Positions 53,856 through 56,164 of a stretch of DNA of 64,000 bases are shown here, piece after piece. How positions within the stretch are numbered: the first letter of the stretch is position 1; each line of letters starts with the position of its first letter. The notes under the pieces are model-generated. The model saw only the letters and a list, made by a program, of their open reading frames with translations. It searched no databases and had not been told where the DNA came from. The position numbers and the translations under genes were made by a program. The DNA is from Aphelocoma coerulescens (taxonomy: Eukaryota; Chordata; Aves; Passeriformes; Corvidae), in the NCBI RefSeq assembly GCF_041296385.1, contig NC_091019.1:7339264-7403263 (forward strand), in the 5' to 3' direction.

Positions 53856-54146
53856 TGTTGGGGCCCTCCCCCTGCCATGTGGTCCTGGGAGAGGGGCCCT
53901 GGGGGGGAAACACAGGGTTTCCCTAGCCCCTGGTCAGCCTCGTTCCCCATTGGTTGTTTTGTGATCCCCTGCGCAGGCAAGGACCCTTGGGTCCCGTGAT
54001 TGCCTCAGTTCCTCGGCAGAGCTCCAGCCATGTGGCTGGAGAAATAAACATCTCTCTGAAACATCAATCAAGAATCGGTCCATATGTATTTCTTTTCCAT
54101 GGGCCTCATTGTCTGATGCATGTGTTGCAGTATCCACACTGTAACA
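53856..54146 (+). mobile_element. 5' LTR of the Y-box element
   Basis: TGTTGGGGCCCTCC to ACTGTAACA. An inverted CCAAT ('cccattggttg') lies near 53,946 and AATAAA at 54,043-54,048; no clear TATA box is present. Two bases later 'tggtagataatgtgagc' sits where a primer site should be. TGGTAG recalls the initiator tRNA-Met end but the match stops there, so I do not assign a tRNA. Confidence 0.93.
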
Positions 54147-54258
54147 AATGGTAGATAATGTGAGCAGAACGATCCCCAGTCTCTAAGGACAGCGACAGAT
54201 TTGTGACTAAACTCTGGATTTCTCTTCTTGTTTTGTTTTGCTGTTCCTTCTCTAAACT

Positions 54259-54630
54259 ATGGAGGAACCGTGGAAAGACTCTTGGCTCTCCAAGCCGCAT
54301 ATGGACATTTATCTTAAACTTGAAAAGATTCTTGAACAACTATTTGTAAATTTTAGCTTAATTCAAGCTCAAAAGGAACTGAAACATTTCCTTTCATGGT
54401 TGTTTAAGAACTTTTTCTACATTTCTTGGGATTTACTTCTTACCAAAGACTTTTGGAATACCGTGTGGACACAGTTAATTTCTGAGTCAAAATATATGCC
54501 AATGGAAGAATATTTTCGTGAATATTATTTAATTACCGAGACCGTTGAGCAATGTCAGCTGTGTCCTGGCGAACGGAAGCATGCCTCAGAGTCCATGCGA
54601 CCCAGACCACTTGGACCGAGTGCTCTCTGA
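54259..54630 (+). CDS. gag: Gag matrix-like ORF of the Y-box element
   Basis: 123 codons from the ATG at 54,259. The first about 95 residues are helical and aromatic-rich: 'LKHFLSWLFKNFFYISWDLL' then 'KDFWNTVWTQLI'. This matches the betaretroviral matrix pattern; element E in this window has the cognate 'SFVQWLFQYLPNL'. The last about 20 residues (from about 54,570) run into GC-rich sequence unlike Gag and end at 54,630. The N-terminal half of a matrix would suffice for membrane or particle targeting but not assembly. I infer that the right edge marks the junction where viral sequence was replaced by cellular sequence. Confidence 0.75.
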   Translation: MEEPWKDSWLSKPHMDIYLKLEKILEQLFVNFSLIQAQKELKHFLSWLFKNFFYISWDLLLTKDFWNTVWTQLISESKYMPMEEYFREYYLITETVEQCQLCPGERKHASESMRPRPLGPSAL

Positions 54631-54900
54631 GCAGCAGCGAGGCAGTTCCTGTGTGTGGGCAGAGCGGCGTGAGCTGCAGTGTCGGCAGCGGAGCAAGGTG
54701 TGGCGGGAGCAGCATGACCCGGCGGGAGCCTGCCCGGCCCTGCGCAGTGCGTGGTGGAGTGAGCCCCATGAGCACTGACTGAGAGAGGCAGCGTGTGGGC
54801 AGCAGCAGGCGGCAGTGGCAGTGGAGCAGAGCTGCGCCTAGCCAAAACGCGCGCTGGAGCAGGGCGCTGGGGGGTCGCCGCTCAGGGGGCTGGCTGAGAC
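54575..54900 (+). other. GC- and CpG-rich segment of the Y-box element
   Basis: GC content rises sharply between the gag end and the cold-shock ORF, with many GCGG and GCAGC units, contrasting with AT-rich sequence on both sides. It resembles the 5' untranslated or N-terminal Ala/Gly-rich coding region of a housekeeping mRNA, which would fit capture of a cellular transcript including its 5' end. Small alternative ORFs (54,545-54,782) lack motifs. Confidence 0.5.
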
Positions 54901-55338
54901 ATGGGCGTGGCGCCAGGCAGCGGCAGCGCAGCTGAGAGCAGAGGCGGCAGCGGCATGCAGGGAGCTGAGCAGTGCGGCCAGGCCCGGCCTGTGCGGCCCC
55001 GAATGCAACCCTGGGAAGAGCGCGCAGGCATGAGCAGCCCCGACAGCCCTGGCAGCACTGACAACCCTGGAAATTCCAACACAGGAGTGAGGGAAAGCAA
55101 AAGAGAAAGCAAAAACACAGCGAGACAGGAAAGAGCAGCCCCTTGGAAAAAGGAAAAAATCACGGTAGCTAAAGTTTTAGGAATAGTAAAATGGTATAAT
55201 ATTAAACAAACCTATGGATTTATAACACGAGATGATACAGGGGAAGATTTATTCATCCATAGAACTGCCATTAAAAGGAACAACCCTAAAAATTACCTGC
55301 AAAGTGTAGGAGATGGGAAGTTGTACAATTTGATATAG
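54901..55338 (+). CDS. Captured Y-box (cold-shock domain) protein ORF
   Basis: 145 codons from the ATG at 54,901, with an in-frame stop two codons upstream and a purine at -3. Residues 1-84 are a low-complexity Gly/Ser/Arg-rich leader. Residues 85-140 form a cold-shock domain. They include VKWYN (Trp98), RNP1-like TYGFI (Phe107) and RNP2-like DLFIHRTAI (Phe118, His120), then 'NNPKNYLQSVGDG'. The spacing 98-107-118-120 equals that of the YBX1 RNA contacts Trp65-Phe74-Phe85-His87. Y-box proteins bind single-stranded RNA and DNA and package or mask mRNA. The frame breaks near 55,318, so the last strands of the fold are lost in this frame. Confidence 0.88.
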   Translation: MGVAPGSGSAAESRGGSGMQGAEQCGQARPVRPRMQPWEERAGMSSPDSPGSTDNPGNSNTGVRESKRESKNTARQERAAPWKKEKITVAKVLGIVKWYNIKQTYGFITRDDTGEDLFIHRTAIKRNNPKNYLQSVGDGKLYNLI

Positions 55339-55610
55339 TACAAGGAAATAAGGATTTACAAGCAGCAAATGTTACTGGGCTGGGAGGTATTCCAGTCAAA
55401 GGCAGCCGTTATGCACAAAATTATAAACAATATCCATCCCAGCAACTTCCCTACCCACAACCTACCTTCCCCTTTTACCCTATACCCAATATGAACCCTT
55501 TCCTAAGTTTACCCTATCCCCAGTTTATTCCTAATCCGTTTTTCACCCCATGGCTTCCCTATACAATTCCCTTTCCCTACAACTCCTCTCTGATACTAAG
55601 GGGGGGATGA
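55318..55610 (+). pseudogene. Cold-shock domain end and Pro/aromatic tail (shifted frame)
   Basis: In the neighbouring frame the Y-box homology resumes at once with 'FDIVQGNKDLQAANVTG' and 'GGIPVKGSRYA', the end of the cold-shock domain and the conserved linker after it, and runs to a TGA at about 55,608-55,610. The tail is rich in Pro, Tyr and Phe and lacks the alternating basic/acidic clusters of cellular YBX1. A one-base change in a 'ggagatgggaag' run explains the break. 'PVKGSRYA' is closest, from memory of the family, to the germline paralogue YBX2; this is weak evidence. Confidence 0.75.
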
Positions 55611-55887
55611 AAAGGGGGAGGGAAGAAATTAACTATTGTTGTTTAGAGTTCCAACAGGTACAAATGGAAGAAACCCTCTCCTGCCTCAGTTTCCCCACAA
55701 AAAATGGCCGGAGAGTCCTGTCTCCCTTCTGTCAGCCTTAAGATGTTCCAGAGAATCTGTTTGGACATTTAAAGACTCAGGAGGGTGGCTTGTTTTGTTT
55801 TGAAGCTGTCCTTGTTATCTCATGTTTATCCAGTTGTTTTCAATGTTAAGTTTTAAATCTCTTTTTGTTAGGAATAAATGGGTGAAA

Positions 55888-56164
55888 TGTTGGGGCCCTC
55901 CCCCTGCCATGTCATCCTGGGAGAGGGGCCCTTGGGGGGAGACACGGGGTTTCCCTAGCCCCTCGTCAGCCTCGTTCCCCCTTGGTTGTTTTGTGTTCTT
56001 CTGCACGGGTCCCGTGATTGCCTGAGCTCCTCCGCAGAGCTCCAGCCATGCGGCTGGAGAAATAAACATCTCTCTGAAACATCAATCAAGAATCGGTCCA
56101 TATATATTTCTTTTCCACAGGCTTCGTTGTCTGATGCACATGTTGCAGTATCTGCACTGTAACA
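55888..56164 (+). mobile_element. 3' LTR of the Y-box element
   Basis: TGTTGGGGCCCTCC to ACTGTAACA, 277 bp, AATAAA at 56,061-56,066. It differs from the 5' LTR by a short deletion after 'ttctgcacgggtcccgtgat' (the 5' copy has an extra 'caaggacccttgg' block) and several substitutions. Confidence 0.93.

What the first reader, a model, noticed from the sequence alone, without database searches (positions are those of the whole stretch)
53856..56164. A transducing-retrovirus-like element that captured a Y-box cold-shock gene
Seen: matched LTRs, a perfect 6-bp target duplication (AGAGAC), a polypurine-like tract, a Gag matrix-like ORF and then an intron-free cold-shock domain whose four RNA-contact residues (Trp98, Phe107, Phe118, His120) keep the exact spacing of YBX1. 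Known: Y-box proteins bind and package mRNA, and retroviral gene capture classically yields partial gag plus a cellular ORF. Inferred: an endogenous ERVK-like virus picked up a spliced Y-box mRNA and the product was mobilised by helper proteins. An RNA-packaging protein inside a retroelement could in principle favour its own RNA. I do not know of a described avian LTR element of this kind.
Basis: partly seen in the sequence, partly recalled or inferred. Interest (0 to 1): 0.96.

Follow-up and report, generated by a model that had tools for sequence, protein, structure and literature searches.

The report
LTR element family carrying Y-box gene
A family of LTR retroelements, in what is likely a songbird genome, carries an intron-free relative of the RNA-packaging Y-box genes, likely captured from a host messenger RNA and apparently kept by selection while the family spread; its protein is predicted to coat the element's own RNA and would help it be copied.

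Summary
The finding is real and larger than first read. The window copy has LTRs 53856-54146 and 55888-56164, a perfect 6-bp duplication (AGAGAC) and a Y-box cold-shock domain (PF00313, 1.6e-11), broken by a frame change near 55,315. One search of the window's own genome found 151 matching places, 150 listed. I read 50, the window copy included: 47 have the order LTR, leader, ORF1, spacer, Y-box, 3' region, LTR; 30 of 46 two-LTR copies show a 6-bp duplication. In 8 of 50 loci (7 insertions) ORF1 and the Y-box form one frame of 399-451 codons. Domain and ORF1 show Ka/Ks 0.31-0.37 against 0.67-1.55 in their wrong frames, so the protein was likely selected while the family spread. Relatives occur in the New Caledonian crow. 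ORF1 as Gag matrix found no support. Parent ERV, helper and source gene were not reached: the genome search answered once. Best reading: a non-autonomous, likely ERV2-type element whose fusion protein would package its own RNA. Nine library searches listed no such element.

The parts
53850..53855 (.). left target-site duplication AGAGAC
53856..54146 (+). 5' LTR, 291 bp, TGTT...AACA, AATAAA inside
   Evidence: AATAAA in the 5' LTR hit of 44 of 47 copies
54149..54166 (+). candidate primer-binding site beginning TGG, two bases after the LTR; primer tRNA not identified
   Evidence: TGG at this place in 30 of 41 copies examined
54259..54630 (+). ORF1, 123 codons plus stop, N-terminal module of unknown origin; in open copies it runs on into the Y-box frame
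   Evidence: Ka/Ks 0.37
54631..54900 (+). GC-rich spacer or linker, open in some family members, broken here
54901..55335 (+). first part of the Y-box frame, with most of the cold-shock domain (W98, F107, F118, H120)
   Evidence: PF00313 1.6e-11; YBX1 chain 6lmr 3e-21
55317..55607 (+). second part of the Y-box frame after a frame change: end of the cold-shock domain, then a Pro/Phe/Tyr-rich tail
   Evidence: YBX2 chain 7f3i 3.1e-9
55611..55887 (+). 3' region, taken as non-coding, ending in a purine-rich stretch
   Evidence: found in all 50 loci read; in the 49 others mostly 88-96% identical, lowest 83%
55888..56164 (+). 3' LTR, 277 bp
56165..56170 (.). right target-site duplication AGAGAC
42802..43088 (+). 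solo LTR of the same family, flanked by ACAACT on both sides, inside the integrase region of another ERV
   Evidence: 79% to the 5' LTR; flanks and a paralogous site without it; IN_DBD_C in the paralogous copy

Best explanation
This is one broken copy of a multi-copy non-autonomous LTR element, likely of ERV2/ERVK type, whose open copies have one continuous frame for a fused protein (a 123-residue N-terminal module, a linker, a Y-box cold-shock domain and a Pro/aromatic tail); the domain was likely taken once from a spliced host Y-box mRNA and is predicted to bind and coat the element's own RNA, which would favour its packaging and copying by a helper ERV. Shown: the anatomy in the 50 loci read, the target duplications, the number of matching places as a lower bound, the fused frames, the codon pattern in the copies sampled, and one tree split between the element domains and the host proteins used. 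Inferred: that the places not read are also elements, capture from mRNA, RNA binding, preference for the element's own RNA, and help in trans by an ERV that supplies the missing polymerase proteins.
For: 151 matches in the own genome, 150 listed, from 2701 first-look candidates of which 150 were scored; same order in 47 of 50 loci read; 6-bp duplications in 30 of 46 two-LTR copies, LTR divergence 0.014-0.213, median 0.091, so repeated insertion over a long time; a frame of 399-451 codons from the ORF1 start in 8 of 50 loci, 7 insertions (six of the eight also matched a domain pattern; L031 and L037 lie in listed frames of 452 and 417 without stops); Ka/Ks 0.33 and 0.31 for the two halves of the domain and 0.37 for ORF1, against 0.67-1.55 in their wrong frames; third-position mismatch ratio 1.73 and 2.23 in the domain against 0.79 in the 3' region; contact residues kept in 47, 49, 46 and 48 of 50; element domains on one side of one branch, support 1.00, 0.93 and 0.87; a crow protein, P0011, that continues into the 3' region, LTR and leader (pieces at 6e-9, 1e-4 and 9e-4). 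Literature: YB-1 depletion lowers HIV RNA and particle output, and the paper cites RNA-dependent effects on MLV and MMTV production (PMC6040738, abstract and passages).
Against: The window copy is broken in both ORFs. ORF1 has no recognisable relative outside the family, so assembly or membrane targeting is guesswork. Copies were found by protein similarity to the window and 20 of the 50 loci were picked mainly for long frames, which can lower Ka/Ks and inflates the share of fused frames; changes after insertion blur the rest, and pairs of copies are not independent. One of three frames of the 3' region gives 0.46, close to ORF1's 0.37 (0.26-0.52 in the rank-picked set); the domain intervals reach 0.59. 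ORF1 is free of in-frame stops in only 22 of 49 copies. 100 of the 150 listed places were not read and could include host exons or other retrocopies. No expression, binding or helper data. The tail lacks the charged repeats of YB-1, on which much of its mRNA packaging is thought to rest (recalled).
Confidence: 0.5

Rival explanations
1. Passenger capture: an ERV-derived element picked up a Y-box mRNA, and the sequence hitch-hiked to many copies because LTRs and leader suffice for mobilisation by a helper; the protein does nothing for the element.
For: Many copies are broken: ORF1 free of in-frame stops in 22 of 49, tail in 20 of 50; spacer and tail drift strongly; capture usually costs viral coding regions and makes a defective provirus (PMC4299795, passages).
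Against: Ka/Ks 0.31-0.33 in the domain against 0.67-1.55 in wrong frames; csdA free of in-frame stops in 47 of 50, csdB in 50 of 50; fused frames in copies with LTR divergence from 0.014 to 0.131 and, less surely, 0.213.
Confidence: 0.2
2. Interference: the element's Y-box protein acts on host silencing or translation, for instance by displacing host Y-box proteins from element RNA, rather than by packaging.
For: The domain keeps its RNA contact residues while the N- and C-terminal arms differ from host Y-box proteins.
Against: No expression data; nothing specific to such targets was found or searched.
Confidence: 0.2
3. Processed pseudogene of a Y-box gene that landed inside an ordinary ERV.
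For: Intron-free Y-box segment.
Against: No A run longer than six after the stop and no shared word of 9 or more bases at its sides; same position in 47 of 50 loci with separate target duplications; one tree split. A pseudogene that entered one ancestor and then spread with it is not excluded as the route of capture.
Confidence: 0.03
4. Domestication: some fused frames now serve as host genes, as hinted by gene models in the New Caledonian crow.
For: Six UniProt entries named 'Uncharacterized protein' from Corvus moneduloides; fused frames in copies with LTR K80 0.127 and 0.131.
Confidence: 0.07

Closest known systems
Crocodilian ERVs with captured KIT-ligand and nectin3 mRNAs (PMC4299795; passages seen)
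   Same: Host mRNA captured by an ERV lineage, several copies, intact ORFs, purifying selection reported.
   Different: Those are a ligand (KIT-ligand, between pol and env) and an adhesion protein (nectin3, at the expense of env); here an RNA-binding domain is fused behind a short N-terminal module in a 2.3-kb element with no room for pol.
Transforming retroviruses with gag-host fusions (recalled)
   Same: Host coding sequence fused in frame behind the first ORF, rest of the genome missing, helper needed.
   Different: Not shown that ORF1 is Gag; germ-line family with old and young copies; captured gene is an RNA-binding protein.
Y-box proteins YBX1, YBX2, YBX3
   Same: Cold-shock domain with the four contact residues; listed vertebrate Y-box proteins mostly 67-73% identical to the relative P0004 over about half its length, lamprey 59%.
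   Different: Long separate branch; Pro/Phe/Tyr-rich tail; fused N-terminal module in open copies; inside an LTR element.
Other non-autonomous LTR elements (recalled)
   Same: LTR-borne, no polymerase, helper needed.
   Different: Carries a host-derived RNA-binding ORF with a coding pattern.

Membership tests
ERV2/ERVK-type LTR element | LTRs with TG...CA ends | tested here: met
   window; required at both ends in the duplication test
ERV2/ERVK-type LTR element | 6-bp target-site duplication | tested here: met
   30 of 46 two-LTR copies at 6 bp (25 exactly at the hit ends, 5 with ends slid; one, L013, repeats LTR letters and may be false; L032 and L033 are one insertion), 3 shorter, 13 none; solo LTR ACAACT; class by TSD length as in PMC6523648
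ERV2/ERVK-type LTR element | polymerase phylogeny | not testable with these tools
   no room for pol in a 2.3-kb element
ERV2/ERVK-type LTR element | primer-binding site matching a tRNA | tested here: inconclusive
   TGG in 30 of 41 copies; tRNA not identified
Transducing retroelement | host-derived, intron-free ORF between LTRs, inherited by the family | tested here: met
   host introns themselves not mapped
Transducing retroelement | remnant of gag at the 5' side | tested here: inconclusive
   ORF1 by position only; Pfam, PDB, fold and profile tests negative
Transducing retroelement | known parent or helper virus with the same LTR or first ORF | not tested
   the genome search with ORF1 did not complete
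Y-box protein | cold-shock domain with the nucleic-acid contact residues | tested here: met
Y-box protein | C-terminal arm of alternating basic and acidic repeats (recalled) | tested here: not met
   by reading: tail is Pro/Phe/Tyr-rich in the window and relatives
Processed pseudogene | own poly-A tail and target duplication | tested here: not met
   shared position in 47 of 50 loci

The most novel reading that the evidence does not exclude
A retroelement lineage has swapped the RNA-binding part of its packaging protein for a captured Y-box domain: it makes a home-grown nucleocapsid-like fusion protein that coats its own RNA, and this let a 2.3-kb polymerase-less parasite spread to likely more than a hundred copies, some of them recent.
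Probability: 0.35. Interest if true: 0.93.

Novelty: new variant of a known kind. Interest (0 to 1): 0.84.

Why it matters
The captured genes I know of in retroelements are mostly growth, surface or adhesion genes. A captured mRNA-packaging domain, fused to a short module and apparently kept by selection through many insertions, would show a parasite solving RNA packaging with a host part. It would make the question 'does an element's own RNA-binding protein favour its own RNA' directly testable, and would be a natural experiment on what a Y-box domain needs besides its core.

Tried and rejected
Rejected: processed pseudogene landing in one ERV copy; chance match (PDB E 3e-21); the double cold-shock proteins P0008, P0010 and P0012, which came up but have two domains and no element features. 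Led nowhere: scans of viral contigs with P0006, P0004 and an LTR 36-mer and of genome contigs with P0004 (no relative; these collections hold viruses, bacteria and archaea, so little was to be expected); matrix identity of ORF1 (three of 15 members touched Pfam Vezatin at best 0.012 and one FabD_helical_ins at 0.11, taken as chance); primer tRNA. Papers: nine searches listed no title or abstract start that describes a Y-box or cold-shock gene in an LTR element; long result lists were cut (15 of 54, 15 of 716), only the held open-access library was searched, and of the listed papers I saw passages of three (PMC6040738, PMC6523648, PMC4299795). Not done for lack of an answer: own-genome searches with ORF1 and host YBX3 (sent), with the 3' region or LTR (never sent); hence no parent virus, no solo-LTR count, no host exon map, no copies collected independently of the protein. 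Age in years is not given: any rate would be recalled.

Full report
What is in the window. The element lies at 53856-56164 on the + strand between perfect AGAGAC repeats. Its LTRs are 291 and 277 bp, 24 differences over 277 aligned bases, K80 0.093. Between them lie a leader with a TGG two bases after the LTR, an ORF of 123 codons (54259-54627), a GC-rich spacer, a Y-box segment, and a 277-base 3' region ending in a purine-rich stretch. The Y-box segment matches Pfam PF00313 (1.6e-11) and solved YBX1 and YBX2 chains (3e-21; 3.1e-9 for the second part). A frame change near 55,315 splits the segment, so this copy is dead as a protein gene.

It is a family. Proteins related over the same stretch exist in the New Caledonian crow (six UniProt entries, P0001, P0002, P0003, P0007, P0009, P0011) and in unnamed ENA records (P0004, P0005). 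P0006 is an 85% relative of ORF1 of the same length. The link to the LTR is clear in P0011, which reads from the domain into the 3' region (6e-9), the LTR (1e-4; 4e-5 to the solo LTR) and the leader (9e-4), and weak in P0003, whose start resembles the LTR at 0.006-0.008. P0001 and P0002 also match antisense stretches, so the crow gene models are not clean. The one answered search of the window's own genome (1.33 Gb, 660 contigs) reported 151 matches at E up to 0.001 and listed 150; 150 of 2701 first-look candidates were scored. That is a lower bound for matches, but the places not read were not checked for LTRs.

Anatomy of copies. I read 50 of the 150 listed places: L001 (the window copy) to L010, given by the search; L011-L029 from ranks 11-30 without rank 26; L030, the last listed; and L031-L050, picked mainly for long open frames. 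The exact order LTR, leader, ORF1, spacer, Y-box, 3' region, LTR holds in 47 of 50; L034, L039 and L040 lack part of the 5' side in the hit table. L032 and L033 are one duplicated stretch. Among 46 loci with two LTR hits over 180 bp, 30 have a 6-bp duplication bounded by TG and CA, 25 of them exactly at the hit ends and 5 with ends slid within 14 bases; one (L013) repeats LTR letters and may be false; 3 have a shorter one and 13 none by this test. K80 between LTRs runs from 0.014 to 0.213, median 0.091. So the family inserted many times, some of them recently.

One protein in open copies. In 8 of 50 loci, 7 insertions, the frame that starts at ORF1 runs without stop for 399-451 codons; one of the eight starts with GTG. 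In six of them a pattern for both halves of the domain was found in the same frame; L031 failed that pattern and L037 had no parsed ORF1 start there, but their listed matches lie in frames of 452 and 417 codons without stops. Seven of the eight are in the batch picked for long frames, so the share is not an estimate; in the listing, 10 of 150 places show a frame of 390 codons or more with no stop inside the match. The shape is an N-terminal module, a linker, the domain and a tail rich in Pro, Phe and Tyr.

Selection. Among 49-50 copies, the mismatch rate at third codon positions over the mean of positions 1 and 2 is 1.73 (1.23-2.44) and 2.23 (1.47-3.45) in the two halves of the domain, 1.40 (1.04-1.83) in ORF1, 1.39 (1.11-1.69) in the tail, 1.21 (1.01-1.48) in the spacer, and 0.79 (0.56-1.08) in the 3' region. 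Ka/Ks is 0.33 and 0.31 in the domain, 0.37 in ORF1, 0.52 in the tail and 0.60 in the spacer; wrong frames of ORF1 and the domain give 0.67-1.55, of the spacer 0.73-0.75, and the 3' region 0.94, 0.71 and 0.46 in its three frames. The rank-picked and the long-frame batches agree: 0.37 and 0.31 in the first half of the domain, 0.32 and 0.30 in the second, intervals reaching 0.59. In-frame stops are absent from the first half in 47 of 50, the second in 50 of 50, ORF1 in 22 of 49 and the tail in 20 of 50. Against: copies were found by protein similarity, pairs are not independent, and the 0.46 control comes close to ORF1. I take selection on the domain as likely and on ORF1 as suggestive.

Origin. 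In a protein tree all element domains used stand together with support 1.00, nearest to human YBX2 at 0.82; no bird YBX1 or YBX2 was in it. With 50 genomic copies the element-host split has support 0.93 and 0.87 for the two halves; YBX2 was not in those trees. This fits one capture; the source paralogue stays open, and host exons were not mapped. The window copy carries a DDTGE stretch seen in none of the other 49 loci but in P0003 and P0004, which suggests recombination between lineages.

What ORF1 is. Position suggests a Gag remnant, but Pfam for two and then 15 members, PDB by profile, Foldseek with a model of mean pLDDT 51.5, and hhalign against two ORFs of other ERV remnants in this window were all negative. 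Those two ORFs have no Pfam identity themselves, so that last test is weak. A model from 15 sequences was no better and was not searched.

How it would work. The element is too short for pol, so it must be copied by proteins made elsewhere (inference). YB-1 depletion lowers HIV RNA and particle output, and the same paper cites RNA-dependent effects on MLV and MMTV production (PMC6040738, abstract and passages). A protein made from the element's own RNA and binding RNA through a kept Y-box domain could coat that RNA and favour its packaging. That step is inferred.

Novelty. Crocodilian ERVs took up KIT-ligand and nectin3 mRNAs with purifying selection reported (PMC4299795, passages), so the kind is known. 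A captured RNA-packaging domain fused behind a short module in a multi-copy germ-line family appeared in none of the lists returned by nine searches of the held library, some of them cut. I file it as a new variant of a known kind.

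Noticed in passing
42802-43088: Solo LTR of the same family with ACAACT on both sides, inside the integrase region of another ERV; a paralogous copy at about 30827-31034 (minus) lacks it.
   Followed up: yes
45083-52062: A different ERV on the minus strand between direct repeats 96% alike (likely its LTRs), with reverse transcriptase, integrase and a weak Gag p24 match; those repeats gave no match to this family's LTR.
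   Followed up: partly
40677-41684: Gag p24 ORF (PF00607, 7e-23) on the + strand, in a further ERV remnant.
   Followed up: partly
54901-55314: Mosaic domain: the DDTGE stretch occurs in none of the other 49 loci read but in a crow and an ENA relative, which suggests recombination between element lineages.
   Followed up: partly
L032 and L033: Two loci 7 Mb apart on one contig, identical over 4761 bases: a recent duplication or an assembly duplicate.
   Followed up: no
3425-4754 and 28308-29542: Inverted repeat pair, 78% alike over 1.4 kb; also a direct pair 6532-7520 and 17458-18464, 75%; the window is rich in repeats.
   Followed up: no
P0008, P0010, P0012: Proteins of unnamed origin with two cold-shock domains in tandem, from short ENA contigs; no sign of the element.
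   Followed up: no
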